From positions 124,001 to 188,000 of the forward strand of contig CANMFQ010000001.1 in NCBI GenBank assembly GCA_947497145.1: DNA of 64,000 bases, in the 5' to 3' direction. How positions within the stretch are numbered: position 1 is the stretch's first letter; each line of letters starts with the position of its first letter. Both the position numbers and the translations under genes were made by a program. The notes under the pieces were generated by a model. That model was not told the DNA's origin, did no database searches, and was given only the letters and a program-made list of their open reading frames with translations. Shown here in pieces: positions 44,371-64,000 of this stretch. Source of the stretch: an uncultured Flavobacteriaceae bacterium (GTDB taxonomy: Bacteria; Bacteroidota; Bacteroidia; Flavobacteriales; Flavobacteriaceae).

Positions 44371-44399
44371 TTTATAACTTTTTTATAGTAAATTGTTAG

Positions 44400-44423
44400 A
44401 TATTTTGTAAATCTACAAAATAT
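44400..44423. promoter_or_regulatory. Inverted repeat in the ALDH promoter region
   Basis: ATATTTTGTA, AATC, TACAAAATAT: a perfect 10-bp inverted repeat 30 bp upstream of the ALDH start codon. It could be an operator or a 5' leader hairpin. No regulator is known. Confidence 0.4.
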
Positions 44424-44618
44424 ATGTGGACGTAAATTTATTACATGATATTAGATTTTTATAACTAGATAGGTTTTGTAATTACCTGACCAATGTATTA
44501 TCACTTTTTCATAAGGTTTAAAACGGGGTGAAAAAGTAAATGCTCGTCTTGTGTTATGAAATACACTGTTTTTTGGGTGTTACCCAACAATTTGATTTAG
44601 TTGAGAGCGAATTAAGGT

Positions 44619-48917: not shown

Positions 48918-50036
48918 TTACTGTAAACTTTCTATTTTTAATTGTTTTTCAATCCAATATGCATCTTTCTTAAATCCAAAAGCTGAAGGGGTATAATCAC
49001 CAACCAAACTAACGTCGGCTTTTGCAGGTATGGGTAATTCCATAGCCCAAAAAATACCATTTACTAGTAACCTACGTACACCTTCATTAAGCATATCGGT
49101 AGCGGCGCCTATAGTACTTGCAAAGGCTTTTCCTGTTTTGTTACTGCCAGGCAACGTATAGCTTTTTGTCCAAGCAATGGGCATTAAAATATCATTTACT
49201 TTATCGCCATTATGGTTTTCTGTGGCTATTTCGTTATCAGTGGGTTTCATTCCAAAGAAGATGTCATTTTCATCATATTCGCCTTTTCTATTGATGACTT
49301 GCCCTAAAATAATAGGCTTGCTATCTCCTGGTAATGGTAAACGAACACCGTAAACATCAGTTGGTCCCCAAATATCAGTGTCACTTAAACCGTTTACAAT
49401 TTCAGCGTTGTCGGCACCTTTTGCTATAACGCCTCGTGTACTTTGGTGTTTATGATGACCGTGATGATTCACCCAATTTTCACCGAGTACTAGACGTCCA
49501 AATCCATCAATCCATTCGGTTTTGTCACCTTTGTAATAATTTCCGTAATGCGCAAAAGTAGAAGTGCTGTCTTTGCTAAAATTAAAGGCATGAGTAGCTG
49601 TACGGATGCCTAAAACAGGCTTTCCTGCTTTTAAATAGTTATCAATATGTTGCATTTGATTGTCGGGTAATGCTCTAAATCGGGTAAAAATAACCATCAT
49701 ATCGGCCGTTTTAAGGGCAGACAAGCCAGGGATGTTTCTAACATAATTACCATTTACAATACCAGGTTTTTCAGGGTCTTGAGCAAAGAGTACAGTACAC
49801 TTAAAACCATGTCTTTTTGATAAGATTTTGGCCAATTGCGGCAGCGCTTCTTCAGAACGATACTCTTCATCGCCTGAGATTAACACAACATGCTTGGCAT
49901 CGGACTTATTCCCTTCAAAAACAAGCCATTCTTTTGGTGTTTCAATTTTAGCTTCAGTTGCCATTGCAGGGGGAGCTTTCTTTTCTTTGCAAGAAAAAAT
50001 GGATAAACAAATAATTGAAAAAAGAATTTTTCTCAT
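48918..50036 (-). CDS. ThuA domain lipoprotein
   Basis: 372 aa. A lipobox ends at Cys16 (LSIFSCKEKK), so it is a predicted lipoprotein. The body is the ThuA/glutamine-amidotransferase-like fold: HVVLISGDEEYRSEEALPQLAKIL, YVRNIPGLSAL, DMMVIFTRFRALPD, PVLGIRTATHAF and the nucleophile-elbow-like region. ThuA proteins are frequent in sugar-oxidation loci, including 3-keto-sugar pathways, and some relatives act on trehalose. It is separated from the upstream sugar isomerase gene by a heptamer repeat. It likely belongs with the sugar locus, though not tied to it by a shared operator. Confidence 0.82.
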   Translation of the reverse strand: MRKILFSIICLSIFSCKEKKAPPAMATEAKIETPKEWLVFEGNKSDAKHVVLISGDEEYRSEEALPQLAKILSKRHGFKCTVLFAQDPEKPGIVNGNYVRNIPGLSALKTADMMVIFTRFRALPDNQMQHIDNYLKAGKPVLGIRTATHAFNFSKDSTSTFAHYGNYYKGDKTEWIDGFGRLVLGENWVNHHGHHKHQSTRGVIAKGADNAEIVNGLSDTDIWGPTDVYGVRLPLPGDSKPIILGQVINRKGEYDENDIFFGMKPTDNEIATENHNGDKVNDILMPIAWTKSYTLPGSNKTGKAFASTIGAATDMLNEGVRRLLVNGIFWAMELPIPAKADVSLVGDYTPSAFGFKKDAYWIEKQLKIESLQ

Positions 50037-50118: not shown

Positions 50119-50160
50119 TACTCAATACTCAATACTCAATACTCAATACTCAATACTCAA
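50119..50160. repeat. Six tandem copies of TACTCAA (heptamer repeat)
   Basis: Six exact copies of TACTCAA fill 50119-50160 without interruption. They cover the stop codon of the sugar isomerase gene (50157-50159) and extend towards the start of the ThuA gene, 83 bp away. A 7-bp unit is not a multiple of three. Inside the isomerase, the repeat touches only the end, so variation in copy number would alter the spacing to the ThuA gene and the last codons or stop. Confidence 0.95.
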
Positions 50161-50996
50161 AGCCCCATGCCATCTTTAATGAATGTCAGTCCTTTGGTAT
50201 AGACTTCTTCTTCGGGCGAATAGTCGCGCCAAACATTAATAGCATTGGCAAATTCGGGTATAATAGTGCTAAATGCTTCAATGGTTAGCCAGCCGTCATA
50301 GTTGATTTCTTTTAAAGTGCTAAAAACATCATCCCAAAGTACCTGACCACTTCCTGGTGTGCCACGGTCGTTTTCACTAATATGTACATGTTTCAAGCAA
50401 GGTGCAATGGTTTGCAAGGCTTTTGCTTGACTTTTTTCTTCAATATTGCTATGGTGTGTGTCATACATAGCACCAAGGTTGGGATGGTCAACAGCTGTTA
50501 CCAACGTTTTTAAATCAGCCATGGTATTGTATAAATAGCACTCAAATCTATTTAAAGCTTCTGGGCAAAGCATAATGTTTGCTTGTGCGGCATATTCCGC
50601 TGCTTTTCGCAGTGTGTCAGCGCTTCGTTTTCGCTCGTCTTGAGTAGGTGGTTGTCTTGTGAAATAGGCAAAACTTGAATGTATAGGGCCACAAATAGTT
50701 TCGGCTCCCAGCGCTTCAGCGTTGTCAATTGCCCATTTTAAACGGTCTAACCCTGCTTGTCTCGTAGCGGCATCTGCACTTGAAATGTTTTCCTCAGGTG
50801 AAAGTCCTGTAACGGCAGTGACACCTACACCAAGACTAGAAAAGTGATTGCCTAACTTAGTATAGTGAGTAACATCGCCATCACCCATATACAATTCAAT
50901 ACCATCGTACCCCGTTTCTTTTAGCTTATCTACAATATGGTAATGTTCCTCTGTAACGTGGTTTGTCCAGAGAAGCATGTTCATTCCTATTTTCAT
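50157..50996 (-). CDS. Sugar phosphate isomerase/epimerase (TIM barrel, hydroxypyruvate-isomerase-like)
   Basis: 279 aa, an AP_endonuc_2/xylose-isomerase-like TIM barrel. Metal ligands lie at the barrel ends: E in CPEALNRFE, D and H in MYDTHHSNIEE, H in KHVHISENDRGTPGSG, and E in WLTIEAFS. The length and pattern are those of hydroxypyruvate or D-tagatose/psicose 3-epimerase-type enzymes. It lies 17 bp downstream of the MFS permease gene, so it forms a two-gene operon with it. The stop codon is inside the TACTCAA repeat. Confidence 0.88.
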   Translation of the reverse strand: MKIGMNMLLWTNHVTEEHYHIVDKLKETGYDGIELYMGDGDVTHYTKLGNHFSSLGVGVTAVTGLSPEENISSADAATRQAGLDRLKWAIDNAEALGAETICGPIHSSFAYFTRQPPTQDERKRSADTLRKAAEYAAQANIMLCPEALNRFECYLYNTMADLKTLVTAVDHPNLGAMYDTHHSNIEEKSQAKALQTIAPCLKHVHISENDRGTPGSGQVLWDDVFSTLKEINYDGWLTIEAFSTIIPEFANAINVWRDYSPEEEVYTKGLTFIKDGMGL

Positions 50997-51013
50997 GAAT
51001 TTAACTTTTTTTA

Positions 51014-52249
51014 TTAGGCGGTTGCAGCTTCTGTTTTACGTTTTTTTACCCAAAACCAAAGAAAGGTAAATAAGACAATAAGTATCGCTGGAAAAGTGAC
51101 CATTGTGCCCAATGTTGCTTGTCCTGCTACAAGGTCTAATTCATCTCCAGTAAGTCCTTGTGAAGCAGCAGCAGCTTTGTCTGAATCAATCCAGCCACCA
51201 ATTATAGGCTGAAAAATTGAAGAAGAAAACATACCCATAGCACCAATGATAGACATACCTAGCGCACCACTTTTTGGAATTTTATCAGCAACAAAACCAA
51301 TCATATTTGGCCAGAAATAGGCAACTCCTAAAGCGAAAAATATGGCAGCTACATAAGCCATTCCTCCTGTTTGCGTGCTAAAAAGATAAACCCCTAAAGT
51401 AGCTAGTACAGCAGAGCCTAAAAGCACTCCAGTTTGGTCAAATTGTTTTACAACACTTCCGCCAAAGAAGCGTGCTACAGCCATTAAACCAGTCACGAGC
51501 GCTAAAATAATCATGGGTTCTGCACCACTCTTGGCTAAAATTAAACCTACCCATTGTTGGGGGCCAAATTCAGATATGGCCGTTAGTGCCATACAGGCTA
51601 ACATAAACAGGAATAAGGGAGAAAGCATTGCTTTGAAGTTGCCCCCAAGTGTTGCTGCTTCTTTGATTTTTGCTTTAGGCCAAGCTTGTCCAAAAAATAA
51701 ATAAGCGTAGATAAGCGTTGGTATCATAATCATCCAAATCTGTGTTTGCCAACTAAGTTCGCTTTTGGTCATGAATTCTGACAGAAGGGCTCCGATAACA
51801 ATTCCTCCTGGGAACCACATATGAAAACGATTTAGCATGGTGCTCATTCTTGTACCTTCATACGCATCGGCAATCATTGGGTTACAAGCTGCTTCAGTAC
51901 ATCCGTTTCCTAATCCAATAAGGAGGGTAGATATTAGTAAGCCAGTATAGCTGCCTGCGTATATGGTTAATATTATACCAAGGGCATGTGATAAAAATGC
52001 AAATTGCATGATTGCTTTTCCGCCTACTTTGTGATAAATTAAACCACCTACTATCATGGATAGTGGAAAACCTAAAAACCACATGGAGTTGATAAAACCT
52101 AATTGTTCTCCTGATAAACTGAGTTCTTCTCCTAGCTGTGGCAAGATCCCTGCTCTTATACTAAAGGAGAGTGCGGTAGTAATTAAAGCAAAACAACTAC
52201 CATAAAAAAGTCTGTTAGCATTCGTCGTCGCTGCTGTGTTTGTTTCCAT
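51014..52249 (-). CDS. MFS transporter of the sugar locus
   Basis: 411 aa with about 12 membrane segments. The first segment is followed by LPQLGEELSLSGEQLGFINSMW, and MFS loop motifs such as GGLIYHKVGGKA are present. It resembles sugar/fucose permease-type carriers of Bacteroidota rather than drug exporters. As first gene of the operon with the isomerase, it is the likely importer for the locus. A copy of the AGGACA..TGTCA motif lies 149 bp upstream of its start. Confidence 0.85.
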   Translation of the reverse strand: METNTAATTNANRLFYGSCFALITTALSFSIRAGILPQLGEELSLSGEQLGFINSMWFLGFPLSMIVGGLIYHKVGGKAIMQFAFLSHALGIILTIYAGSYTGLLISTLLIGLGNGCTEAACNPMIADAYEGTRMSTMLNRFHMWFPGGIVIGALLSEFMTKSELSWQTQIWMIMIPTLIYAYLFFGQAWPKAKIKEAATLGGNFKAMLSPLFLFMLACMALTAISEFGPQQWVGLILAKSGAEPMIILALVTGLMAVARFFGGSVVKQFDQTGVLLGSAVLATLGVYLFSTQTGGMAYVAAIFFALGVAYFWPNMIGFVADKIPKSGALGMSIIGAMGMFSSSIFQPIIGGWIDSDKAAAASQGLTGDELDLVAGQATLGTMVTFPAILIVLFTFLWFWVKKRKTEAATA

Positions 52250-52398
52250 AAGAAATTGAAGTTTAGAAGGGTTTGGTTTATTTTAATTTTTTTTAATAAA
52301 AAATAGTTAGTTTCAAGGTGAATCAAATACTTGATATATCTGAATTGATAAAAATACAGTTTTCAATAAAAATATTATAGCTGAATTTTGTTAAATGA

Positions 52399-52415
52399 TG
52401 ACACTATTTTGTCCT
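52399..52415 (-). promoter_or_regulatory. Putative AraC-regulator operator, permease side
   Basis: Minus-strand sequence AGGACAAAATAGTGTCA. It agrees with the site at 53412-53428 at 16 of 17 positions, including an inverted core GACA-N6-TGTC. It is placed upstream of the permease/isomerase operon. Confidence 0.6.
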
Positions 52416-52495
52416 TACTTGGTCAATGGAGCGCTTTTTTTAACAAAATACAGTTATTGGACTGTATTTGTCTGTTAATTTTTTATGTTGTCCTA

Positions 52496-53377
52496 TTATA
52501 CGTCTGTTTGAATTTTTAAGAAAAGTTTGCGGTATTCAAGTGGACTCATATTAGCGATGGTTTTAAATTGTTTGTTAAAATTAGAGAGGGTATTAAAGCC
52601 ACATTCGTAACTGATTTGTGAAATATTAAAATTGTCTTCAAGAAGCAATTTTCGAGCATGACCAATACGAATCTCGTTAACAAATCTTGAAAAAGTCTTG
52701 TTTGCTCTAGGCTTAAAGTAACGACAAAAAGATGTAGTGGTCATATTCAACATTGTGGCAATTTCGTCTAAAGCAATCTTAGTTTTAAAATTAGACATGA
52801 CATATTCATGTACCATACTCATTTTTGCAGCATCACCTCCTTTGAAAACATTGTTATAACCAGGACTCGATAGTAAGTTGTATTCGCTACTATTGGCCAT
52901 AATGTCAATAATTTCCAATAATTTTATAATCCGTTTAAACCCTTTTTCTTTGCCAATACTTAATAATAGTATGTTTATTTTTTGCTGTGTTTCCCCGTAA
53001 AATTCCATGCCTCGCGCAGCGTGTTTTACCAGTTTGTTGATGCCGTAAAACTCTTCCTTTTCTAATAGCGATCTACTCAAAAGTTCATTGTCGAAATAAA
53101 TAACTAATGCCCTAGTGGTAAGGGTGCTGTTTTTTTTAAAATAAGCATCATCACTACGCCATAAATGAGGCAGATTAGGCCCCGTAAATATCAAATCACC
53201 TTCTTCAAATGGTGCTACGTGGTCACCTACAAAGCGGGTGCCTTTGCCTTCTACAATTAGCGAAATTTGAAATTCTGGATGAAAATGCCAATTGGGGTTG
53301 AAATAGGGGCTATATAAATCTTTAAAGACAAAAGTTTCTTTAGGAGTAAGCGTTTTTTCTATATTAGGGACACTCAT
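52496..53377 (-). CDS. AraC-family regulator with cupin sensor domain
   Basis: 293 aa. N-terminal cupin-like arabinose-binding domain (about 15-110, with NWHFHPEFQISLIVEGKGTRFVGDH and FEEGDLIFTGPNLPHLWR), a middle helical linker, and a C-terminal pair of helix-turn-helix motifs (about 195-290: IALDEIATMLNMTTTSFCRYFK, NISQISYECGFNTLSNFNKQFK). It should bind a sugar-derived ligand and activate or repress the two flanking operons. Its own promoter region holds one copy of the proposed operator, so self-regulation is likely. Confidence 0.92.
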   Translation of the reverse strand: MSVPNIEKTLTPKETFVFKDLYSPYFNPNWHFHPEFQISLIVEGKGTRFVGDHVAPFEEGDLIFTGPNLPHLWRSDDAYFKKNSTLTTRALVIYFDNELLSRSLLEKEEFYGINKLVKHAARGMEFYGETQQKINILLLSIGKEKGFKRIIKLLEIIDIMANSSEYNLLSSPGYNNVFKGGDAAKMSMVHEYVMSNFKTKIALDEIATMLNMTTTSFCRYFKPRANKTFSRFVNEIRIGHARKLLLEDNFNISQISYECGFNTLSNFNKQFKTIANMSPLEYRKLFLKIQTDV

Positions 53378-53411
53378 AAATTTTCCTTTAAAGCTCAGTT
53401 TTTACCAATAT

Positions 53412-53428
53412 AGGACAAAAAAGTGTCA
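53412..53428 (+). promoter_or_regulatory. Putative AraC-regulator operator, catabolic operon side
   Basis: AGGACAAAAAAGTGTCA, which differs from the copy at 52399-52415 only at position 10. It sits 42 bp upstream of the TAATTTTG box of the plus-strand operon and next to a near -7 box (TATATTGG, 53405-53412, minus) of the AraC gene, so it could both activate the operon and repress its own gene. Confidence 0.6.
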
Positions 53429-53470
53429 ATTTTTAATAAAATATAGGAAATATTGTATTGATATGTACTT

Positions 53471-53478
53471 TAATTTTG
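53471..53478 (+). promoter_or_regulatory. -7 promoter box (TAATTTTG) of the plus-strand sugar operon
   Basis: Exact TAnnTTTG match 78 bp before the first gene start and downstream of the proposed operator. A good -33 TTG at correct spacing is not clear, as expected of an activator-dependent promoter. Confidence 0.5.
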
Positions 53479-53556
53479 TAAGGCTATAGAAATCAACTTA
53501 TCTTGTAGCTGACCAATTTTTCTTCAGAAGTAGCTAACTTTTAAATATAATAGGCA

Positions 53557-54606
53557 ATGCAAAAAAACAATTATCCAAAATTACACAACGCCTCATGGCC
53601 TGGTGTTGTTGGGAAAGGTCCCGATTCTGAACCGCCAATTGATATCGACACTATGATCGATCTTACCGCAAATGCGGAGGTTGATGGTGTGAAATTTGAT
53701 GGTTTCGACCTGTTCGTAGCCGATCCGCATTTAGCTATTGACGCCTCCGATGACGGTATTAAAATTATGGCTGATAAGGCACGTGCTAAAAATTTAGAAA
53801 TAGGTAGTTTAGTGGCGCCTATTTGGGCAGGAACAGGCGGCGGATCTGCTATGGGAAGTAGTACCGAGAGAAAGCAGTTTGTTGATCAGGTGCGTAAGGC
53901 TTGTATCATTGGTAAAAAACTTAGGGATATTGGCGTTCGTCCCAATGGAATTATTAGAATAGATTCTTCGGTAGATCCAGAAAGTTGGGCTGCAGATGAG
54001 GTGGGTAACACCAAGTTAATAGCTCAAACTTTTCGTGAAGCGTGTGATGTGGCTGCTGATTACGGCGAGTCTTTAGCTGCTGAAGGCGAAATATGCTGGG
54101 GTGGTATGCATGGCTGGAAAACCATGTTGAATACTTTAGAAGCTGTTGATAGACCTAATATCGGCTTTCAAGCTGATATGGCTCATACTTTACTATATCT
54201 CTTGGGGTACAACAAAGAAGACGAGCGTATTTTACCCGCTGATTTTCAATGGGATGATCGTGATACGTTAACTGAGGGACTCAAAACCTTAACGGCTGCC
54301 TTGCGTCCGTGGACGATTGATTTTCATGTGGCACAAAATGATGGAACTGTTTTTGGCGCAGGTTCACATGACAAAACAGGGAGGCACTGCCAAGCTGCAG
54401 ATCCTAATGGAAAATTAGATATTCCAGTTGATGCAGGACACTGGTTGCGTGATGAAAATGGAATTTTGACCAAAAAATTTAAGCATATCTGCTGGGATGG
54501 GTGTATGTTTCCTAATGAGGTGATGATGCAACCAAAAACATGGAATGATATTCTAGGGGCTATGATTAAAGTACGTGATTTACACGGCTGGTATGAAGCT
54601 GAGTAA
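53557..54606 (+). CDS. Sugar phosphate isomerase/epimerase (TIM barrel)
   Basis: 349 aa, larger than the 279-aa paralogue across the AraC gene. TIM barrel of the xylose-isomerase-like superfamily. Metal ligands: E in [17 protein letters not shown] and H in [13 protein letters not shown] in [20 protein letters not shown] Gly/Ser loop ([11 protein letters not shown]) and the C-terminal [14 protein letters not shown] are distinctive of a clade seen in sugar-oxidation loci with Gfo/Idh enzymes. It is the first gene of a six-gene operon. Substrate unknown. Confidence 0.85.
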
Positions 54607-54703
54607 AATGAGTTTGTACAGCTTTGCAAAAGAGTAGGTTTGGGCTGTTCTGTACAGCATCCGCCAAAAAAATAAAAACCAAATAATTTGATTATTTACA
54701 CAA

Positions 54704-55858
54704 ATGAGTAGTAAAAAACAACTAAGAATAGGTCTTGTAGGTTATGGTTTTATGGGAAGAACCCATTCTAACGCCTATAAAAGAGTTGGCGATTTTTTTC
54801 CAGAATTGGAATATCAACCCGTATTAAAAGCGGTGTGCGCCAGAAATAAAGAAAGAGTAACCGCATTTGCTAAGCAATGGGGCTATGAATCTGTAGAAAC
54901 TGATTGGAGAGCACTTGTTGCACGTGATGATATCGACGCTATTGATATTTGTACGCCAAATAATATGCATGCCGAAATTGCTATTGCAGCCGCCGAGGCG
55001 GGTAAAATGGTGCTTTGTGAAAAGCCATTAGCAAGAACCGTAGCAGAAGCACAACCTATGGTAGATGCTATTGAAAAAGCTAAAGTGCCTAATACCGTAT
55101 ATTACAACTACCGCAGAATACCAGCGGTTACCTTGGCAAAACAGCTTATTGATGCCGGTAAATTGGGTAAAATATTTCATTATCGGGCAAACTTTTTACA
55201 AGATTGGACGATAAGCCCTGAATTACCACAAGGAGGAGAAGGTCTTTGGCGGTTAGATAACGCCGCAGCAGGGTCGGGGGTGACAGGTGATCTTTTGGCG
55301 CATTGTATTGATACGGCTATGTGGCTCAACGGAGGTATTAAAGATGTTTCTGCAATGACAGAAACTTTTATTAAAGAACGAGTGCACTCGGGTACTGGTG
55401 AGGTGCAAAAAGTGGGTATTGATGATGCGTGTATTTTTCATTGCCATTTTGATAATGGTTCATTAGGTCTTTTTGAGTCTACCCGTTATGCCAGAGGACA
55501 CAAAGCATTGTATACTTTTGAAATTAATGGAGAGCATGCCTCTATTAAATGGAATTTACACGATTTGTCACGTTTAGAATATTTTGACCACAGAGATGAA
55601 TCGATGGAAAGAGGATGGCGTTCTATTCATATTACTGATGGTGATCATCCGTATATGGACAAATGGTGGGTGCCTGGTTTATCAATAGGATATGAGCATA
55701 GTTTTGTACACCAAATTGCTGATTTCTTAAAAAGCCTACAAGAAGGTACACCTTGTTCTCCTACGTTTAAAGAAGCGCAAGAAACTCAAAAAGTTTGTGA
55801 AGCTGTCTTGGAGTCTGCCAAAACAAAAAGCTGGAAAGATACCGGTGTAGTATGGTAA
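54704..55858 (+). CDS. Gfo/Idh/MocA oxidoreductase 1
   Basis: 384 aa, NAD(P)-dependent dehydrogenase of the glucose-fructose oxidoreductase family. Rossmann motif [20 protein letters not shown] (start), catalytic [11 protein letters not shown] and [10 protein letters not shown] typical of the group; [20 protein letters not shown] holds the active-site region with the catalytic His. These enzymes oxidise or reduce ring positions C1-C3 of sugars and cyclitols. It is the second gene of the operon, 97 bp after the isomerase gene. Confidence 0.9.
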
Positions 55859-55937
55859 TATGGGATGCCAGTATTTTAAAGAAATGATTTCTTTATTAAC
55901 ACAAACCCTCTTACCGAATAGTGATTAAAATATAAAA

Positions 55938-57050
55938 ATGAGTGAAACAATAAAGGGCTTTTGCCTGCACGGGAAAGAAAAAATTTATCCCAATTCTGGG
56001 GTTTCAGTTACCAGTAATACATCGGTAGTTACTATGGAATTGCCAGCATTAAAAGAAGGTGAAATTCTAGCAAAAACCTTATACACGGGTATTTGTGGTT
56101 CTGATAATAGTGCGGCAATCGGAAAGGCTAATTTTGATTGGGTGCAACGCCCAAGAATTATTGGGCATGAGTTTAGTGCCGAAGTGTTAGAACTAGGACC
56201 GGGAGATCATGGAGATTTAAAAGTTGGCGATTTATTTGCACCCTTGGCAATGTTGGGTTGTCGTGATGAAGAATGTCCCGCTTGTAGTGTGGCAAAATGG
56301 AATCTTTGTGCTTCAAAAGAAATTATAGGTTTTCATAGAAATGGTGGTTTTGGTCAACGTGTTGTGCTAGAATCTGATCGGGTTGTTCCGCTTATGAAGG
56401 GCTTGACACCTCAGCAAGGGGCTTTGGTTGAACCGTTATCTATAATTACCAATGCATTGTATAATAAATGCAGTATTAAACCCGGTGATGATGTAGTGGT
56501 GACAGGCTGTGGTATTATTGGTTTAATGTCTGCCGAAGTTGCTCGCGCTGCGGGAGCTAGAGTGGCAGTTACAGGTCTTGCTCATGATCGTGATATACGC
56601 TTAAAAAAGGCCGAGGAAAGAGGCTTTATAACGCTGGAGGTTTCTCCGGATAATACATTGGCCTCTCAATTACAAAATGGAATTGCAGATGCCAATGGCA
56701 TTCCTTTTGGAACCAACGGAAAGGTAGATTTATTAATTGAATGCTCTGGCGTACCACAGGTATTAACCGAGGCAATTTCCGTTGTGCGGCCAGAAGGAGA
56801 TATTTGTGTTATTGCAACCTATGGTGCCGAGGTGCCTATAAATGCTACCCATTTAACACGTACATCTTTAAATATGCGAGGTTCTATGGGGTCTTGTCGT
56901 GATGATTATATGGCGGCTATGAAATTGATGGTTACTGGGGTATTTCCATCAGAGCATTACACCGATTTTTATGATTTTGAAAATATCACCCAAGCCTTTG
57001 AAGATTCTATAAAGGCAAAAAACATGAAAGCGGTAGTGAAAATGAATTGA
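55938..57050 (+). CDS. Zinc-dependent alcohol dehydrogenase (MDR family)
   Basis: 370 aa. Catalytic zinc ligands C53, H77 and E165 (GICGSD, GHEFS, LVEPLSI). The structural zinc site is C108, C113, C116, C124 (C-x4-C-x2-C-x7-C), slightly different from the common C-x2-C-x2-C-x7-C. NAD binding motif VVTGCGIIGLMSAEVARAAGA near 186. Similar enzymes oxidise sorbitol, threonine or other polyols, and sugars at C1 or C3. It is the third gene of the operon. Confidence 0.9.
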   Translation: MSETIKGFCLHGKEKIYPNSGVSVTSNTSVVTMELPALKEGEILAKTLYTGICGSDNSAAIGKANFDWVQRPRIIGHEFSAEVLELGPGDHGDLKVGDLFAPLAMLGCRDEECPACSVAKWNLCASKEIIGFHRNGGFGQRVVLESDRVVPLMKGLTPQQGALVEPLSIITNALYNKCSIKPGDDVVVTGCGIIGLMSAEVARAAGARVAVTGLAHDRDIRLKKAEERGFITLEVSPDNTLASQLQNGIADANGIPFGTNGKVDLLIECSGVPQVLTEAISVVRPEGDICVIATYGAEVPINATHLTRTSLNMRGSMGSCRDDYMAAMKLMVTGVFPSEHYTDFYDFENITQAFEDSIKAKNMKAVVKMN

Positions 57051-57101
57051 GTGCTTTAAAACAGCAAAATGCAACACTAATAGATTTAGGATCAAAAAAA
57101 T

Positions 57102-58121
57102 ATGCATAAAATATTTATTACAGGAGGTACCGGCTGCATTGGTTCGGTAACCATTTATAAATTATTACAATCTGCGGAGGTTAAAAAAATTGTAGTAGCC
57201 ACAAGATCTAATAATGTAGCACCCCTAAAATTATGGCTTGGTGAAGATCTTGACCCTCGTTTGGAGTTTGTAACACTTGATGTTTCTAATTACAGTGAGA
57301 TTAATAGGGTGCTTCAAGAAGTGAATCCAACACATATCATTCATTTAGGGGCCTATCAAAGTCCCGATTGTTCAAGAGATCATATGGGCGGTATGGAAAT
57401 TAATGCAGGGGGCACTATGGCCTTGTTTGATGCTGCAGAAAAATTAGCCAACCTTCAGCGTTTTGTTTTTGCTAGTTCAGCGGCTGTATATGGCATGCGA
57501 AGCATGTATCCGCAAGATAGTATCAACGAAGATGTGCTATTAGCTCCACCCAATCATTATGGTATATGGAAACTGGCCGGAGAGCATCTAGCGCGATTGT
57601 TTTATGATAACACCAAGGTGCCAACCGTATGTCTTAGAATTAACACTACCTACGGAAAAGGGAGAGATAAAGGAAAAACATCGGCACCTACCAATGCCTT
57701 AAAAGCAATTGCCATGGGTGCAGTTCAAGGGAAATTAATGCCTTTTGAAATGCCATATCAAGGGCGTGAAAATTATCATTTTGTAGAAGATGTGGGAGCG
57801 CATTTTGCAGCCTGTGCATTACAAGCATATGATGGTTTTGGAGCATTTAATATTCAAGGAGAAACTATTCCTATACCCTCGTTTTTAGAGCTTATTAAAA
57901 AAGAGGCTGAGGCATTGGGTATGGGAGATTATGTGTCACTTTCTATCGTAGAAAATGCGCCACCAAACCTTTTTGTTTGTGATTTAGATCATACTAAAAT
58001 AGCAACTACTTTTAACGGCTTACCGTTGACCAAAATTTCGGATGGTGTTCGTCAATCATTACTAGAATTTAAAAAAATGGCAGAAAAAGGAACATTAGAA
58101 TACTCTAAACCGGCCTCATGA
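57102..58121 (+). CDS. NAD-dependent epimerase/dehydratase
   Basis: 339 aa extended SDR. NAD motif ITGGTGCIGS at the start, SAAVYG for the catalytic Ser, and the active pair Y153/K157 in NHYGIWK. Length fits UDP-sugar epimerases and also sugar-1-dehydrogenases. The ending LEYSKPAS is unlike nucleotide-sugar enzymes. Its stop overlaps the next start by 4 bp. In this catabolic operon a role as a sugar or lactone dehydrogenase is more likely than nucleotide-sugar synthesis; that is inference. Confidence 0.87.
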   Translation: MHKIFITGGTGCIGSVTIYKLLQSAEVKKIVVATRSNNVAPLKLWLGEDLDPRLEFVTLDVSNYSEINRVLQEVNPTHIIHLGAYQSPDCSRDHMGGMEINAGGTMALFDAAEKLANLQRFVFASSAAVYGMRSMYPQDSINEDVLLAPPNHYGIWKLAGEHLARLFYDNTKVPTVCLRINTTYGKGRDKGKTSAPTNALKAIAMGAVQGKLMPFEMPYQGRENYHFVEDVGAHFAACALQAYDGFGAFNIQGETIPIPSFLELIKKEAEALGMGDYVSLSIVENAPPNLFVCDLDHTKIATTFNGLPLTKISDGVRQSLLEFKKMAEKGTLEYSKPAS

Positions 58122-59089
58122 AAACACTAGGAATTGCATTTATTGGTGCTGGCGATATCGCAAACTTGCATGCCGAAGCTATTAATGAATTGCCAGGGGC
58201 AGACTTAATTGGTCTTTGGAATCGCACAGCCGAAAAGGGAGTTGCTAAAGCAAAAGAATACGGTTGTGCTGTGTATGCATCGATTGATGAATTACTTAAT
58301 GACCCAAAAGTAGATGCTGTTTTCATACTTACCAATATGGAAACCCATTGTGAATATACATTAAAAGCTGCTGCTGCGGGGAAACATATTTTGGTTGAAA
58401 AACCAGCGGCCTCCAATATTGCTGAATTGGAGCGTATGCATGAAGCCGTAAAAAAAGCAGGAGTGCAATGTATGCCAGTACATAATTATATTTATGAGCC
58501 CAGTATCGAACGTGCTAAAGCGATGATTGAAACGGGTAAATTGGGTGCTATTGTGCAGTTTTATATGCTTTACAATATTCACCATGCTGATGAGATAAGG
58601 GCGCGTTACCCGGGCGTAATTCGTCAGATATTAACGCACCACAGTTATACCATGTTGTATTTGGCGGGAGAACCAAAAACGGTGTCTTGTATGATGAACA
58701 CTGTTGATGATACCATTGCACCACAAGAAAATGTAGCCATGGCAACCATTCAAATGCAAAACGGAACCCTCAGTCATTTGTGTGCTAGTTTTGCCAATGA
58801 TGATCATGCCGGCGACCCATGGACGTGTATGATTAAGGTGATTGGCACCAAAGGAAGTACACGGTATAGCTATCGCGATTTTGTTATTAACGATCGTAAT
58901 GGTGCGCATTCACAAACCTATCAATGTTATCCAGAATCCATCAAAAATACCGCTGTGCATTTTATAAATCGTGTAGTGCGTTTGGGTGAGGCGCCGCTTT
59001 CTAGTTTAGAAGATGCCATTAGTTGCCAGCAAATTATTGAAGCCTGTGAATTATCAGTTAAAGAAGGTATTCACGTAAAATTGAAGTAA
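58118..59089 (+). CDS. Gfo/Idh/MocA oxidoreductase 2
   Basis: 323 aa. Rossmann motif IAFIGAGDIANLHAEAI and the EKPAASNIAELE active-site strand. A family paralogue of the 54704 gene but diverged and shorter. GVIRQILTHHSYTMLYLAGEPKT contains the His-His pair typical of a subgroup. It is translationally coupled to the epimerase gene. Having two Gfo/Idh enzymes in one operon suggests sequential oxidation and reduction at one ring position, as in 3-keto-sugar cycles. Confidence 0.89.
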   Translation: MKTLGIAFIGAGDIANLHAEAINELPGADLIGLWNRTAEKGVAKAKEYGCAVYASIDELLNDPKVDAVFILTNMETHCEYTLKAAAAGKHILVEKPAASNIAELERMHEAVKKAGVQCMPVHNYIYEPSIERAKAMIETGKLGAIVQFYMLYNIHHADEIRARYPGVIRQILTHHSYTMLYLAGEPKTVSCMMNTVDDTIAPQENVAMATIQMQNGTLSHLCASFANDDHAGDPWTCMIKVIGTKGSTRYSYRDFVINDRNGAHSQTYQCYPESIKNTAVHFINRVVRLGEAPLSSLEDAISCQQIIEACELSVKEGIHVKLK

Positions 59090-59126
59090 AGAAGAGTTCA
59101 ATAAATAGTCTTATAAAAACGAAAGA

Positions 59127-62100
59127 ATGAGAATCAAAAGAAAATTAGTCCAGTTGTGTTTGTTGCTTGGTGTTTTACTAATCGTAACAAGTTGTACGCA
59201 AAAAGATAAGAAGGGGTTAGCGTTCCAAAAGGATGCTCATATCGTTTTAATAGGAAATAATTTGCCTTCGCGTATGTTAAACTTTGGTCATTTTGAAACT
59301 GAAATGCATTTGCGTTATCCAGATAGCACTTTGTTTATTAGAAATATGGGTGATGGAGGAAACACACCGGGCTTTAGACCACATTCTTCGCGGAATTCTC
59401 CTTGGGCTTTTCCAGGAGCAGAAAAATTTCAAACCGAACTTGCAAATAAATCAGGAAGCATAGGGCATTTTCCAACAGAAGATGAATGGCTGACTGATTT
59501 AAAGGCAGATGTGGTGCTAGCCTTTTTTGGGTATAGCGAATCTTTTGAAGGAGCGGCAGGTGTAGAAAATTATAAGGCAGAGTTACATGCATTCATTGAG
59601 CATACAAAACGTCAGAAGTACAATGGTAAAAGTGCCCCTAAACTGGCATTAGTATCTCCCATAGCTTTTGAAGATTTGTCAGCAAAAATGGATTTGCCTG
59701 ATGGGAAAAAGGAAAATCGAAATTTGGCGCTCTATACCAAAGCAATGAAAGAGGTTGCTGCAAAGGATAGTGTGCTATTTGTTGATGCTTTTGACGCTAC
59801 TTCAAAATGGTATGCATCAGAAACAGATGATTTAACCGCTGATGGATTTCAATTGAATGATTTGGGGTATCAGAAATTTGCAAGCTTTTTAGCAGATCAA
59901 GTTTTTGGGGAAGCCGAACAAAAGGCAGTAGCTCATAAGAAGGGTATTCATGAAGCAGTTATGGAGAAAAATTGGTTTTGGCATAATGATTTTAAAATTC
60001 CAAACGGAGTACATGCTTATGGAAGACGTTATGATCCATTTGGGCCAGCCAATTATCCTTTTGAGATAGAAAAAATTCGCCAAATGACTGCCAATCGCGA
60101 TCAGGCAATTTGGGAGGCAGCCCACGGAAAAACAATGGATTTGGCTGCTGCCGATGCGAAAACAAGAAAACTACCTCCTGTAGAAACGAACTACAACAAG
60201 GGGCAAGGAGATGCTGAAGAAGGATATTTGAACGGGCAAGATGCATTGAATAGATTTAAAGTAGCCAAAGGATATAAAATTGAATTATTTGCCTCAGAAC
60301 AAGAGTTTCCTGATTTGGCAAACCCAGTGCAAATGTCTTTTGATAATAAAGGAAGACTTTGGGTGGGGGTAATGCCTACCTATCCGCATTACAAGCCCGG
60401 AGATAGTAAGCCTAATGATAAGTTGATTATTCTTGAAGATACTGATAATGATGGCAAAGCAGATAAGCAAACCACTTTTGTTGATGATTTACATTTAACC
60501 ATTGGTTTTGAATTTGCGCCTGAAGGCGTATATGTGTCTCAAGGTACCAATTTGGTATTGCTAAAAGATACTGATGGTGACGATAAAGTTGATGAAAGGG
60601 AAATTATTTTAAGTGGTTTTGATGACCATGATACCCACCATACAGCTGGGGCGTATGTGGCAGATCCTTCTGGTGCTATTTATATGGGTGAAGGCGTGTT
60701 TTTACATACCAATGTTGAAACTGCTTATGGTACTGTACGTGCTACCAATGGTGGTTTTTATAGGTATAGCCCACAACGGCATCATTTAGAACGAACAGCG
60801 CAATTGCCAATACCTAATCCTTGGGGAATTGCTTTTGATGATTGGGGACAGCCATTTTTTGCGCATACCTCTGGGCCTGATATGACTTGGATGACTCCAG
60901 GAACCATTAAACCGAGATACGGACAAGCATCTCCATTACCTCAAAACCTTATTGAAGATAAACATCGTGTAAGGCCTACCTCTGGTTTAGAGTTTATTTC
61001 AAGCCGTCACTTTCCTGATGAGGTGCAAGGTGATATCATAATTAATAATACCATTGGTTTTTTGGGTACCAAGCAACACACTATTGTTGATGACCCAGAA
61101 AGTTCAGGCTACAATAGCCGACACCGTTTAGATTTAATCACTTCAAGTGATACTAAATTTCGTCCTGTTGATATGGAGTTTGCGCCAGACGGATCTTTGT
61201 ATTTGGTAGATTGGCAGAATGTATTAGTGGGGCATATGCAACATAATGCTCGTGATCCTTTACGTGATCATGCGCATGGTAGAATATATAGAATTACCTA
61301 TCCATCTCGGCCTTTAGTGAAACCTGCAAAAATTGTTGACGCTTCTATTGATGAGCTATTAGAAAATTTAAAGCTACCAGAATATCGTACTCGATATCGT
61401 ACAAAAAGAGAATTGCGTGCAAGAGATACAGAAGAAGTTTTGGCGAAAATTAAAGATTGGACTGCTGCACTTGATAAAAATGACGCACAATATGAACACC
61501 ATCTGTTGGAAGCCCTTTGGGTGACTTGGGGATTGAATGAAATAGATGAAGGTTTATTAAAACAACTATTAAATGCTAAAGACTTTAGAGCACGAGCAGC
61601 TGCAGTAAAGGTATTGCGCTATACCGGACATCAAATTTCGACACAGGCAGATTTACTAATGGTAGCAGCCAAAGATGAAAATGCACGAGTACGTTTAGAA
61701 GCTTTTGTAGCAGCTTCATGGTTAGATAAAGAAGTAGGCTTGCCTATTATAGAAGCAGCAGGCAAAATGCCTCTAGACAAATGGATGCAAAAACCTTATG
61801 AAGCGGCTATTGCCCATATTAATGATGTGAATGTTGGTCAAGATCCAGAAACCAAAGGCACGAAAACAGCTTTAAAAGGTGCTGAAAAAGCCCTTTTTGT
61901 AAAAGGCGAAGAGATCTATAACAGAGAAGGCTTCTGCGTTACTTGCCACCAGCCAGATGGTAAAGGCTTAAATGCATCGCAATTTCCGCCTTTGGCAAAA
62001 TCACCATGGGTAACGGGTAATGAAGAACGCCTAATTAAAATAACACTTAACGGTCTTATGGGGCCTCTTACTTTAAATGGGCATACCTATCCTGGTCAAG

Positions 62101-62297
62101 TGCCTATGACGCCGTACGGAGGTATGTTGAAAGATGAAGAAATAGCCTCGGTTTTAACCTTCGTTAGAAATACTTTTGGTAATAAGGCATCGGCGATTTC
62201 TCCTGAAATGGTCAAAAAGGTACGTGAAGAAACTAAAGATAAGAAGGGCTTTTATACACCAGCAGAATTGCTGAAAGCACATCCTATGGAAAAATAA
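59127..62297 (+). CDS. Large lipoprotein with SGNH-like, propeller and cytochrome c domains (PVC-type)
   Basis: 1056 aa. A lipobox ends at Cys23 (LIVTSCTQK). Residues about 30-285 are SGNH/GDSL-hydrolase-like, but the Ser position reads IGNNLPSRM and the C-terminal block reads DGFQLNDLGY with Q in place of the usual His, so the active site looks lost. A beta-propeller dehydrogenase-like domain follows at about 380-760 (VAKGYKIELFASEQEFPD, GIAFDDWGQPFF), then a HEAT-like helical part, and a class I cytochrome c at 915-1040 with CVTCH (937-941) and an axial Met in VPMTPYG. The set is well known in Planctomycetes ('PVC-type heme-binding protein'). It likely passes sugar-derived electrons to a periplasmic chain. 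Confidence 0.85.
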   Translation: MRIKRKLVQLCLLLGVLLIVTSCTQKDKKGLAFQKDAHIVLIGNNLPSRMLNFGHFETEMHLRYPDSTLFIRNMGDGGNTPGFRPHSSRNSPWAFPGAEKFQTELANKSGSIGHFPTEDEWLTDLKADVVLAFFGYSESFEGAAGVENYKAELHAFIEHTKRQKYNGKSAPKLALVSPIAFEDLSAKMDLPDGKKENRNLALYTKAMKEVAAKDSVLFVDAFDATSKWYASETDDLTADGFQLNDLGYQKFASFLADQVFGEAEQKAVAHKKGIHEAVMEKNWFWHNDFKIPNGVHAYGRRYDPFGPANYPFEIEKIRQMTANRDQAIWEAAHGKTMDLAAADAKTRKLPPVETNYNKGQGDAEEGYLNGQDALNRFKVAKGYKIELFASEQEFPDLANPVQMSFDNKGRLWVGVMPTYPHYKPGDSKPNDKLIILEDTDNDGKADKQTTFVDDLHLTIGFEFAPEGVYVSQGTNLVLLKDTDGDDKVDEREIILSGFDDHDTHHTAGAYVADPSGAIYMGEGVFLHTNVETAYGTVRATNGGFYRYSPQRHHLERTAQLPIPNPWGIAFDDWGQPFFAHTSGPDMTWMTPGTIKPRYGQASPLPQNLIEDKHRVRPTSGLEFISSRHFPDEVQGDIIINNTIGFLGTKQHTIVDDPESSGYNSRHRLDLITSSDTKFRPVDMEFAPDGSLYLVDWQNVLVGHMQHNARDPLRDHAHGRIYRITYPSRPLVKPAKIVDASIDELLENLKLPEYRTRYRTKRELRARDTEEVLAKIKDWTAALDKNDAQYEHHLLEALWVTWGLNEIDEGLLKQLLNAKDFRARAAAVKVLRYTGHQISTQADLLMVAAKDENARVRLEAFVAASWLDKEVGLPIIEAAGKMPLDKWMQKPYEAAIAHINDVNVGQDPETKGTKTALKGAEKALFVKGEEIYNREGFCVTCHQPDGKGLNASQFPPLAKSPWVTGNEERLIKITLNGLMGPLTLNGHTYPGQVPMTPYGGMLKDEEIASVLTFVRNTFGNKASAISPEMVKKVREETKDKKGFYTPAELLKAHPMEK

Positions 62298-62347
62298 TTT
62301 AATCCGCTTTTCGCATTTGAACTTAGTGATAATCAGGATTTAAAGTA

Positions 62348-62376
62348 GTACCGCATCAATAGCATTGATGCGGTAC
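62348..62376. terminator. Hairpin between convergent genes
   Basis: GTACCGCATCAAT, AGC, ATTGATGCGGTAC: a perfect 13-bp stem with a 3-nt loop. No strong T-run follows. It ends the plus-strand sugar operon and may protect both transcripts. Confidence 0.7.
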
Positions 62377-62483
62377 GTATTTAATTCATGTTTGAAAAGC
62401 GTTTTATGAAGCTTATCTTGTCGTGCTTTTAAGTAGGATCACGAAGTTCTATTGCATAATGCAAGTGTATAGATGCTTTTTTA

Positions 62484-62819
62484 TTAAGCATTAAAGTCAA
62501 ATATCTTCTCCATGAGTAACCATTTTTCTCCTGGTTTTGCAATAGGTAATGCTTGTTGGTAATCCCACATTAAATCTTCCCAATCTTGAACTCTTGAATT
62601 TTCGGTATCCATTTGCGCCTTTTTCTCAAAAGAGAAATCATCATTAACCTCCATAATCATAAAAAGGCGGTTTGAGATTCTATAAATTTCCATGTGTACA
62701 ATTCCAGAATCCCTAAGGCTATCAAGAATTTCGGGCCACACATCGCTATGGTATTTTTCGTAGGCAGCTATAAGTGCTGGATCATCTTTTAAATCTAAGG
62801 CTAAGCAGTGTCTTTTCAT
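62484..62819 (-). CDS. L-rhamnose mutarotase-type protein (RhaM family)
   Basis: 111 aa. The signature YEKYHSDVWPEIL carries the catalytic His and Trp of RhaM, which speeds the anomer exchange of L-rhamnose; L-fucose is a substrate of some relatives. HMEIYRISNRLFMIMEV and VQDWEDLMW are also conserved, and MKRHC is the normal start. It lies 27 bp after the DUF1501 gene and faces the sugar operon. It suggests that the locus handles a 6-deoxy sugar, but the family is not strict. Confidence 0.85.
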   Translation of the reverse strand: MKRHCLALDLKDDPALIAAYEKYHSDVWPEILDSLRDSGIVHMEIYRISNRLFMIMEVNDDFSFEKKAQMDTENSRVQDWEDLMWDYQQALPIAKPGEKWLLMEKIFDFNA

Positions 62820-62846: not shown

Positions 62847-64000
62847 TTAACTTAAAATATCTTTTACTATGTTACCATGAACATCGGTTAGGCGATAACG
62901 TCTCCCTTGATGTTTGAAGGTAAATTGCTCATGGTCTATGCCCATTAAATGCATTAAGGTAGCTTGAAAATCATGTACATGTACGTTTCCTTCAACAGGG
63001 TTAAATCCAAAATCATCAGATGCACCATGGGTATAGCCTGGTTTTATGCCGGCACCAGCCATCCATAAGGTAAAAACATAAGGATGATGATCTCTACCCC
63101 AATTACGAACATCTTTAATATTGCCTTGTAAAAAGGGAGTGCGACCAAACTCTCCGCCCCAAATCACCAAAGTGTCTTCAAGCATACCACGTTGTTTTAA
63201 ATCTTTGATAAGGGCAGCACTAGCTTGATCGGTATCTTTACATTGAATTTTTAATTGATAATTGAGATTGTTATGTTGATCCCAACCTGCATGCATACAT
63301 TGAATAAAGCGAACATCACGTTCAGCTAATCTACGTGCCATAAGACAGTTGTAGGCAAAGCTACCCTTACGGTGCACGTCGGCTCCATACATTTCTAAGA
63401 TATGTGCAGGTTCGTCTGAAAAATCGGTGAGTTCGGGTACACTCATTTGCATTTTATAGGCCATTTCATATTGTGAGATACGAGTGTTTATTTCTGGGTC
63501 TCCATAGTGAGCATGGTTTATTTCGTTTAAAGCCTGCATATCGTCTAAAATTTTTCTACGCATTTCACGACTTACTCCTTCAGGGTTTTTTAAATACAAT
63601 ACAGGGTCACCACCACCTCGAAATTTTACGCCTTGGAATTTGGTGGGAAGAAAGCCGCTTCCCCAGTAGTAATCGTAAAAAATTTGTCCGCAGCTAGCTT
63701 CCTTATCCCGTGAGGTCATGGCAACAAAATCGGGAAGGTTTTTGGCGGTTGTTCCTAACCCGTATGTTAACCATGAGCCTATGCTGGGTCTGCCGGGTTG
63801 CTCAGAGCCTGTTAAAAAGAAGGTTATCGCTGGTGCATGGTTTACAGATTCGGTATACATTGATTTTATAAAACAAAGGTCATCAGCAATTTTAGCCGTA
63901 TGTGGCATAAGATCAGAAACCCAAGCGCCACTTTTTCCATGTTGGGCGAAGTTCCCAATCCCTGCAATTACGGGTCGTACCGCTTGCTCACCCGTCATTG
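62847..64000 (-). CDS. DUF1501 protein, N-terminus beyond the window
   Basis: At least 384 codons; the frame is still open at the window end, and an internal Met occurs at 63998. The family usually has about 480 residues with a Tat signal, so about 100 N-terminal residues are missing. The visible part has the alkaline-phosphatase-like DUF1501 pattern: SVNHAPAITFFLTGSEQPGRPSIGSW, GGDPVLYL, GGEFGRTPF and GRDHHPYVFTLWMAGAGI. DUF1501 proteins often sit beside DUF1553 or cytochrome proteins; the cytochrome lipoprotein is across the hairpin. Its enzyme activity is not established. Confidence 0.85.
   Translation of the reverse strand, partial: MTGEQAVRPVIAGIGNFAQHGKSGAWVSDLMPHTAKIADDLCFIKSMYTESVNHAPAITFFLTGSEQPGRPSIGSWLTYGLGTTAKNLPDFVAMTSRDKEASCGQIFYDYYWGSGFLPTKFQGVKFRGGGDPVLYLKNPEGVSREMRRKILDDMQALNEINHAHYGDPEINTRISQYEMAYKMQMSVPELTDFSDEPAHILEMYGADVHRKGSFAYNCLMARRLAERDVRFIQCMHAGWDQHNNLNYQLKIQCKDTDQASAALIKDLKQRGMLEDTLVIWGGEFGRTPFLQGNIKDVRNWGRDHHPYVFTLWMAGAGIKPGYTHGASDDFGFNPVEGNVHVHDFQATLMHLMGIDHEQFTFKHQGRRYRLTDVHGNIVKDILS

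What the first reader, a model, noticed from the sequence alone, without database searches (positions are those of the whole stretch)
50157..62819. Possible undescribed oxidative sugar pathway
An AraC regulator sits between an importer/isomerase operon and an operon of a second isomerase, two Gfo/Idh enzymes, a zinc alcohol dehydrogenase, an NAD epimerase/dehydrogenase and a cytochrome lipoprotein. A RhaM-type mutarotase faces it, and a sulfatase and a ThuA protein are near. No kinase, aldolase or known full pathway (fucose, rhamnose, inositol, keto-trehalose) is present. A route with ring oxidation at C1 or C3, isomerisation and re-reduction of a deoxy- or methyl-sugar from sulfated algal glycans would use all of these.
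Basis: partly seen in the sequence, partly recalled or inferred. Interest (0 to 1): 0.65.

Follow-up and report, generated by a model that had tools for sequence, protein, structure and literature searches.

The report
Marine keto-sugar catabolic gene cluster
A conserved set of about nine sugar-modifying genes, kept together in a minority of Flavobacteriaceae genomes, looks like a variant of known routes that oxidise a sugar ring, rearrange it and reduce it again; which sugar it uses is unknown.

Summary
The locus ThuA-EpiA-MFS-(AraC) // TIM2-Gfo1-ADH-SDR-Gfo2-PVC is more than chance: in a sample of one bacterial family SDR occurs in 17 of 249 genomes (own included), and in the 16 others it lies in this locus (one cut by a contig end; MFS in 14, RhaM in 10, AraC in 5). 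It has two parts: TIM2 with Gfo1 (74 of 80 TIM2 loci), elsewhere often beside a DUF1080 3-keto-disaccharide hydrolase family (46 of 80), and an ADH-SDR-Gfo2 triad seen only in the marine type. Gfo1 resembles levoglucosan 3-dehydrogenase (346 bits, cut-off 650), EpiA resembles ketose 3-epimerases and YcjR, TIM2 fits no named enzyme. Best reading: oxidation, elimination/hydration or epimerisation, re-reduction, of the Lgd/YcjQRS kind; all chemistry inferred, substrate unknown. 'Deoxy- or methyl-sugar from sulfated glycans' has little support: the sulfatase is kept in 1 of 17 relatives where it could be seen, and RhaM is below its equivalog cut-off.

The parts
48918..50036 (-). ThuA-domain protein with lipoprotein-like N-terminus (by eye), 120 bp downstream of EpiA
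   Evidence: PF06283 34.2 bits vs 33.4 cut-off; in 15 of 16 sampled loci
50157..50996 (-). EpiA: PF01261 TIM barrel, ketose 3-epimerase-like
   Evidence: NCBIfam D-psicose 3-epimerase 177 bits, below the 300 cut-off; profile vs PDB: tagatose 3-epimerase 170 bits, YcjR 93 bits; E146, D179, H182, H205, R211, E240 align with the same residues of E. coli YcjR; 15 of 16 loci
51014..52249 (-). MFS importer
   Evidence: PF07690 97 bits; 14 of 16 loci
52496..53377 (-). AraC-type regulator with cupin-like ligand domain
   Evidence: PF12833, PF02311; 5 of 16 loci
53557..54606 (+). TIM2: highly conserved TIM-barrel protein that accompanies Gfo1; ketosugar eliminase/hydratase/isomerase by inference
   Evidence: PF01261 40 bits, no NCBIfam family at E<=0.001; best 80 of at least 587 relatives fetched; alignment A1 77% mean column identity; AlphaFold2 pLDDT 83.6; IolE, tagatose epimerases and AtHYD all within 1.0 of the best Z 23.4
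54704..55858 (+). Gfo1: levoglucosan-dehydrogenase-like Gfo/Idh/MocA protein
   Evidence: LevoglcsnDh 346 bits vs 650 cut-off; PDB 4h3v, 6a3f; K107, D196, H200 conserved; present in 74 of 80 TIM2 loci
55938..57050 (+). Zn-dependent medium-chain dehydrogenase (ADH)
   Evidence: PF08240, PF00107; best NCBIfam IolM 147 bits vs 450 cut-off; 16 of 16 loci
57102..58121 (+). extended SDR (NAD epimerase/dehydratase family)
   Evidence: PF01370 116 bits; best NCBIfam D-erythronate dehydrogenase 76 bits vs 325; 17 of 249 family genomes and 2 of 296 phylum genomes, own included
58118..59089 (+). Gfo2: second Gfo/Idh/MocA protein; Gln at the position of the usual catalytic Asp
   Evidence: PF01408 101 bits; K95, Q170, H174; 16 of 16 loci
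59127..62297 (+). PVC-type lipoprotein (lipobox by eye): SGNH-like, DUF7133, HEAT and cytochrome c domains; possible periplasmic dehydrogenase
   Evidence: PF23500 229 bits, PF00034, PF13646; PF13472 31.8 bits just under its 32.9 cut-off; TIGR02604 228 bits vs 122; 16 of 16 loci
62484..62819 (-). RhaM-family mutarotase, facing the operon
   Evidence: PF05336 112 bits; TIGR02625 35 bits vs 99.6; 10 of 16 loci
62847..63998 (-). DUF1501-type protein (part; gene continues past the window in L002), followed by a DUF1549/DUF1553 protein with PSCyt1; probably not part of the conserved locus
   Evidence: DUF1553 by Pfam; DUF1501 named by recall, not scanned; no hit in the 19 marine-type loci at E<=1e-10 and >50% coverage, L023 ending before it

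Best explanation
The locus encodes a keto-sugar funnel. MFS imports a sugar or glycoside. Gfo1 oxidises a ring hydroxyl, most likely C3, with NAD(P)+. TIM2, its usual companion, does metal-dependent chemistry on the ketosugar (elimination, hydration or isomerisation). EpiA epimerises a ketosugar or ketose. One or more of ADH, SDR and Gfo2 re-reduce or re-position the carbonyl so that an ordinary hexose leaves for central metabolism. ThuA and the PVC cytochrome lipoprotein act outside the inner membrane; the latter may pre-oxidise the substrate and feed electrons to respiration. SHOWN: gene content, order, conservation, families, conserved residues and predicted TIM2 fold. INFERRED: every reaction, the order of steps, the location of enzymes, the C3 position. 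UNKNOWN: substrate.
For: Gfo1 matches levoglucosan dehydrogenase over residues 5-379 (346 bits; 6a3f) with the Lys-Asp-His set kept. In the levoglucosan route LgdA makes the 3-keto sugar and is followed by two sugar phosphate isomerase-type proteins and a second Gfo/Idh (PMC7676230), the same classes as here. Gfo1 is present in 74 of 80 TIM2 loci, in most directly after TIM2. In Maribacter arcticus (L083) both TIM2 and Gfo1 fall outside the marine clade while ADH, SDR, Gfo2, EpiA and PVC are 77-86% identical to the window's, as if the two were exchanged together. A DUF1080 3-keto-disaccharide hydrolase family lies in 46 of 80 TIM2 loci (clusters; one representative scanned), and the window's own genome holds 17 DUF1080 domain matches. 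EpiA carries the residue set of YcjR. The TIM2 model has the fold of ketose epimerases, IolE and the 3-keto-glucal hydratase AtHYD. TIM2, Gfo1, ADH, SDR, Gfo2 and EpiA start without a visible signal peptide; ThuA and PVC start like lipoproteins (by eye).
Against: No enzyme reaches the curated cut-off of a 3-keto-pathway family. DUF1080 is not in any of the 16 marine loci (one query) nor clustered in the 19. EpiA is closer to free-ketose epimerases than to YcjR, and its profile search at E<=0.01 did not list the Agrobacterium eliminase 8bvk. TIM2 fold matches do not separate hydratases, dehydratases, epimerases and xylose isomerase. Gfo2 has Gln for the usual catalytic Asp. YcjQ gave no hit to ADH at 1e-3. 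For Gfo1 the separate place of L083 is not forced by well-supported branches. No growth, expression or metabolite data.
Confidence: 0.55

Rival explanations
1. Cyclitol route: Gfo1/Gfo2 act as inositol dehydrogenases, ADH as an inosose dehydrogenase (IolM-like), TIM2 as an inosose dehydratase or isomerase and EpiA as a 5-keto-L-gluconate-type epimerase (IolO-like), as in Thermotoga (pathway recalled).
For: ADH best NCBIfam hit is IolM (147 bits), EpiA hits IolO (132 bits), both Gfo proteins hit IolG (119, 123 bits); TIM2 fold close to IolE 3cny (Z 23.1); a TIM-barrel family with weak IolE likeness (c13; its member in L063 59.5 bits vs 290 cut-off) also occurs in the marine-type relative L083.
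Against: All scores are far below the curated cut-offs 450, 300, 355; no kinase in the locus (IolN was not looked for); Gfo1 scores 346 bits with levoglucosan dehydrogenase against 119 with IolG; many relatives carry a DUF1080 family.
Confidence: 0.13
2. Non-phosphorylative oxidation of a deoxy-hexose (L-fucose or L-rhamnose type): dehydrogenase to lactone, lactonase, then dehydratase and further oxidation; the RhaM-type mutarotase supplies the anomer.
For: RhaM-type gene in 10 of 16 loci; GH95 catalytic domain in 2 of 60 flank proteins, which I take to be the two frames beside TIM2 in L083; no FucI in the genome (the same query finds it in 4 of 99 Bacteroidota); 8 MR_MLE_C matches in the genome; Amidohydro_2 in 3 of 60 flank proteins (one named).
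Against: No dehydratase or lactonase family among the ten scanned locus proteins; Amidohydro_2, GH95 and sulfatase are not regular neighbours; RhaM below the TIGR02625 cut-off; the RhaA search has no control.
Confidence: 0.15
3. Polyol or ketose route: ADH oxidises an algal polyol to a ketose, EpiA epimerises the ketose at C3 and the reductases return it; TIM2-Gfo1 serve a second substrate.
For: EpiA profile is best with tagatose 3-epimerases (170 bits); ADH is related to threonine, butanediol, xylitol and sorbitol dehydrogenases.
Against: Leaves the regular TIM2-Gfo1 pair, SDR and Gfo2 without a role in the same locus; no ketose kinase in the locus.
Confidence: 0.1
4. True levoglucosan (anhydrosugar) utilisation locus.
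For: Gfo1 match to LGDH over nearly its whole length with the catalytic set kept; two TIM barrels and two Gfo proteins as in lgdA-B1-B2-C (PMC7676230).
Against: 346 bits vs the 650-bit equivalog cut-off; Gfo proteins 39-44% identical to Gfo1 sit in differing gene sets in the 4 plasmid loci read.
Confidence: 0.05

Closest known systems
Levoglucosan pathway LgdA-LgdB1-LgdB2-LgdC (Bacillus smithii; PMC7676230, abstract and first part of Results read)
   Same: Gfo/Idh dehydrogenase of the LGDH branch, two sugar phosphate isomerase-type TIM barrels, a second Gfo/Idh, regulator and importer in one locus
   Different: Gfo1 far below the LGDH cut-off; extra Zn-ADH, SDR, ThuA, PVC cytochrome lipoprotein; MFS instead of ABC importer
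E. coli ycjQRS, D-guloside to D-glucoside (annotation; passages of PMC11543891; original papers recalled, not held)
   Same: dehydrogenase, PF01261-type epimerase and Gfo/Idh working on 3-keto-glycosides; EpiA residues match YcjR
   Different: YcjQ does not hit ADH; EpiA closer to ketose 3-epimerases; no phosphorylases; additional enzymes
Agrobacterium GlycDH / AtOGE / AtHYD / Gfo glycoside cleavage (PMC10628242, passages read)
   Same: oxidise, eliminate, hydrate, reduce logic; TIM2 model aligns with AtHYD 8ro4 (Z 22.4, 275 residues, 3.5 A)
   Different: no GlycDH among the locus proteins; TIM2 and EpiA profile searches listed neither 8bvk nor 8ro4
3-keto-disaccharide pathway with LacABC/BT2157 and DUF1080 (PMC9007349, passages read)
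   Same: a DUF1080 family in 46 of 80 TIM2 loci; 17 DUF1080 matches in the own genome
   Different: no DUF1080 in the marine locus
Thermotoga inositol route IolG/IolM/IolO (recalled; NCBIfam names)
   Same: same superfamilies
   Different: all below cut-offs

Membership tests
Levoglucosan pathway (LgdABC) | LgdA equivalog, NF052479 >= 650 bits | tested here: not met
   346.4 bits
Levoglucosan pathway (LgdABC) | Lys-Asp-His catalytic set of the Gfo/Idh dehydrogenase | tested here: met
   K107, D196, H200 conserved in the Gfo1 family and aligned with the same letters in 6a3f
Levoglucosan pathway (LgdABC) | LgdB1 eliminase and LgdB2 hydratase orthologues | not tested
   LgdB sequences not in hand
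3-keto-glucal hydratase (AtHYD type) | TIM2 belongs to the hydratase fold family rather than to other TIM barrels | tested here: inconclusive
   8ro4 Z 22.4 lies within 1.0 of the best row, among IolE and ketose epimerases
ycjQRS pathway | YcjR-type residue set in the epimerase (metal ligands named by recall) | tested here: met
   E146, D179, H205, E240, H182, R211 align one to one; by recall the set is shared with ketose 3-epimerases
ycjQRS pathway | YcjQ orthologue | tested here: not met
   no BLAST hit of YcjQ to ADH at E 1e-3
3-keto-disaccharide pathway | DUF1080 hydrolase in the locus | tested here: not met
   absent from the ten window proteins and from 16 of 16 marine loci; family in 46 of 80 TIM2 loci
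Inositol (Iol) pathway | IolG, IolM, IolO equivalog cut-offs | tested here: not met
   119 and 123 of 355, 147 of 450, 132 of 300 bits
L-fucose isomerase pathway | FucI in the genome | tested here: not met
   no match; the same query rings in 4 of 99 Bacteroidota at 63-67% identity
L-rhamnose isomerase pathway | RhaA in the genome | tested here: inconclusive
   no match, no positive control
L-rhamnose mutarotase RhaM | TIGR02625 >= 99.6 bits | tested here: not met
   35 bits; Pfam rhaM family 112 bits
Any oxidation / rearrangement / re-reduction pathway | enzymes act on 3-keto sugars | not testable with these tools
   needs purified enzymes

The most novel reading that the evidence does not exclude
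A nine-gene marine pathway, not seen described in the listings searched here, in which TIM2 founds a new enzyme family (ketosugar lyase, hydratase or isomerase) coupled to Gfo1, and the ADH-SDR-Gfo2 triad stands in for the DUF1080/DUF4432/404-aa step of other Bacteroidota, with a cytochrome-linked PVC protein doing the first oxidation outside the inner membrane.
Probability: 0.35. Interest if true: 0.62.

Novelty: new variant of a known kind. Interest (0 to 1): 0.42.

Why it matters
Where TIM2 occurs (8 of 198 sampled Bacteroidota; at least 587 relatives in the genome collection) Gfo1 is nearly always with it (74 of 80), yet TIM2 matches no NCBIfam family and no solved structure by sequence better than E 0.02. 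Finding its reaction would annotate many loci at once, would test whether PVC-type cytochrome proteins and ThuA proteins are partners of 3-keto-sugar routes, and would show how marine bacteria can bypass ordinary glycosidases.

Tried and rejected
TIM2 vs PDB by sequence: only weak matches (best E 0.021), no family assigned. TIM2 in plasmids by tblastn: no match. Fold search of TIM2: many TIM-barrel families lie together, so no reaction is claimed from fold; AtOGE 8bvk is not among the 50 rows shown, which is not evidence. PVC structure: mean pLDDT 62.9, residues 495-667 under 50, so not searched. Region upstream of TIM2: no shared motif seen by eye in 13 sequences. Gfo1 plasmid neighbourhoods: annotated ThuA or sugar phosphate isomerase/TIM-barrel proteins near the Gfo gene in 4 of 4 loci read (of 1736 records with a match), which hints at a broad pairing but gives no substrate. 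Maribacter laminarin paper PMC11345257 (passages): one 'sugar phosphate isomerase/epimerase' is upregulated in one strain but could not be tied to this locus. Sulfated-glycan substrate: set aside as unsupported (sulfatase orthologue in 1 of 17 loci with enough flank; PF00884 in 2 of 60 flank proteins). Papers not held: the Nature 2024 alternative glycan pathway, looked up by a recalled DOI, and the YcjR structure paper.

Rows dropped and limits: L018 and L023 were left out of the sulfatase count because their contigs end too near. A1 and the TIM2 model hold the window protein and 37 of the 80 fetched loci; A4 holds the window PVC and 20 of 29 listed; A5 the window EpiA and 21 of 41. 60 of 88 flanking open frames of the 19 marine-type loci went into the family scan, whose tally does not name the members. 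In one search the best 80 of 587 relatives were kept, so counts over 80 lean to close relatives. Counts need E<=1e-10 and over 50% coverage and include weak homologues (EpiA and Gfo2 from 27-31%, ThuA from 31%, PVC from 23% identity). Clusters c2, c3 and c4 were named from one scanned member each; c6 was named by eye. Part of the output was cut.
Full report
1. Observation. The plus-strand operon TIM2-Gfo1-ADH-SDR-Gfo2-PVC has gaps of 97, 79, 51, -4 and 37 bp; on the other strand EpiA and MFS are 17 bp apart and ThuA follows EpiA by 120 bp (coordinates). The RhaM-type gene lies 27 bp after a DUF1501-type gene that, with a DUF1553 gene, runs past the window end.

2. Is the locus real? A scan of one genome per species with TIM2 kept 80 of 587 relatives. 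With the limits given under Tried and rejected, Gfo1 is in 74 of 80, EpiA in 45, ThuA in 31, PVC in 30, ADH in 19 and SDR in 19 (the 21 Gfo2 hits include homologues of 31% and 52% in L050 and L051). The 19 loci with ADH and SDR (L008-L024, L068, L083) come mostly from Flavobacteriaceae such as Arenibacter, Maribacter, Eudoraea and Kriegella, with one Splendidivirga (titles); I call them marine from recall of these genera. Drawing genomes by SDR instead, it was found in 2 of 296 Bacteroidota genomes (E<=1e-60) and in 17 of 249 genomes of the same family (E<=1e-50), own genome included in both. ADH and Gfo2 flank it in all 16 others. Stretches of up to 20 kb around these 16 show ADH, SDR, Gfo2, Gfo1 and PVC in 16 of 16, TIM2, EpiA and ThuA in 15 of 16 (L119 is cut by its contig), MFS in 14, RhaM in 10, AraC in 5. 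At these thresholds SDR was not seen outside the locus. Four of the 16 are the same contigs as, so the two counts are not independent.

3. Two modules. Outside the marine type, TIM2-Gfo1 is accompanied by families whose scanned members are DUF1080 3-keto-disaccharide hydrolase (46 of 80), DUF4432 (47 of 80) and a 404-aa protein without Pfam or NCBIfam match (51 of 80), and by a large CxxCH lipoprotein family judged PVC-like by eye (33 of 80). One relative (L049) holds the clusters named DUF1080, DUF4432, TIM2, Gfo1, ThuA, PVC and EpiA together, with DUF1501-like (25%) and a further family beside them. Trees put the marine TIM2 and Gfo1 proteins together except those of Maribacter arcticus L083, both of which fall outside (for TIM2 well-supported branches force two changes, for Gfo1 they do not). 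L083 keeps ADH, SDR, Gfo2, EpiA and PVC at 77-86% identity. I read this as an exchange of TIM2-Gfo1 as one functional unit; it is inference.

4. Enzymes. Gfo1: LevoglcsnDh 346 bits against 650, PDB 4h3v and 6a3f, Lys107-Asp196-His200 kept. Gfo2: Lys95, Gln170, His174, so one of the three differs. EpiA: six residues coincide with YcjR, but its profile is closest to tagatose/allulose 3-epimerases (170 bits) and less to YcjR (93 bits). TIM2: invariant E178, D207, H210, H257, D314 could be the metal site, by analogy only; predicted fold at pLDDT 83.6; VIA-align Z 23.4 to 2zds, 23.1 to IolE 3cny, 22.4 to AtHYD 8ro4, too close to choose. ADH and SDR match several families, all below cut-off. PVC: TIGR02604 above cut-off, cytochrome c and DUF7133; my structure model was too weak to use.

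5. Mechanism. The levoglucosan route oxidises C3, eliminates, hydrates and re-reduces with two Gfo/Idh proteins and two isomerase-type barrels (PMC7676230, abstract and first part of Results). Homologues of that set are widespread and vary in their PF01261 members (PMC10066097, abstract and Discussion). The Agrobacterium route has the same logic with another dehydrogenase (PMC10628242, passages), and E. coli ycjQRS is annotated as guloside 3-dehydrogenase, 3-dehydro-guloside 4-epimerase and glucoside 3-dehydrogenase. The present locus has the same enzyme classes and no kinase or aldolase, as expected if the product is a hexose. Steps, order and substrate are inferred.

6. Substrate. The own genome holds 17 DUF1080 domain matches, two of them in one frame, which suits an organism living on 3-keto-glycosides. 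FucI is absent (control) and RhaA gave no match (no control). The genome has 8 MR_MLE_C matches, so acid-sugar dehydratases may exist elsewhere. The sulfatase is not part of the conserved set (1 of 17). GH95 was found in 2 of 60 flank proteins, taken to be those of L083. I therefore leave the substrate open.

7. Literature. The listings (capped in 32 and 47) showed no title or start of abstract that describes this gene set; this covers only the held open-access library.

8. Verdict. Real, conserved, moderately interesting; a new variant of a known kind of pathway, with an unassigned enzyme family (TIM2) as its most novel part.

Noticed in passing
window 20730-29841, minus strand: Aerotolerance-type cluster: MoxR AAA ATPase, DUF58, two BatA/vWA proteins, TPR, BatD, TPR-SH3; the 556-aa frame 26197-27867 has no Pfam match.
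   Followed up: partly
window 42817-45158, minus strand: 3-hydroxyanthranilate dioxygenase family gene beside an aldehyde dehydrogenase, perhaps a kynurenine route.
   Followed up: no
window 48221-48880: SUFU-domain protein between the sulfatase and ThuA genes.
   Followed up: no
L002 5044-10669 (just past the window): CBM9_2 protein, GSDH-type dehydrogenase with cytochrome c, and three genes that look like a TRAP transporter (named by reading only).
   Followed up: partly
own genome G000, for example C8:118729-120412, C5:219020-220588, C4:239443-243816: 17 DUF1080 domain matches, several close together.
   Followed up: no
L073:8709-9920 and its cluster (51 of 80 loci): 404-aa protein just before TIM2 in many non-marine relatives, without Pfam or NCBIfam match.
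   Followed up: partly
L010, L011, L013, L109, L111, L118: A second ThuA gene (36-40% identical) lies between AraC and TIM2 (L010 member scanned).
   Followed up: no
L083:4195-5484 and 5447-6571, minus strand: The GH95-like sequence beside the Maribacter arcticus locus is read as two overlapping frames, so the gene may be frameshifted in that record.
   Followed up: no
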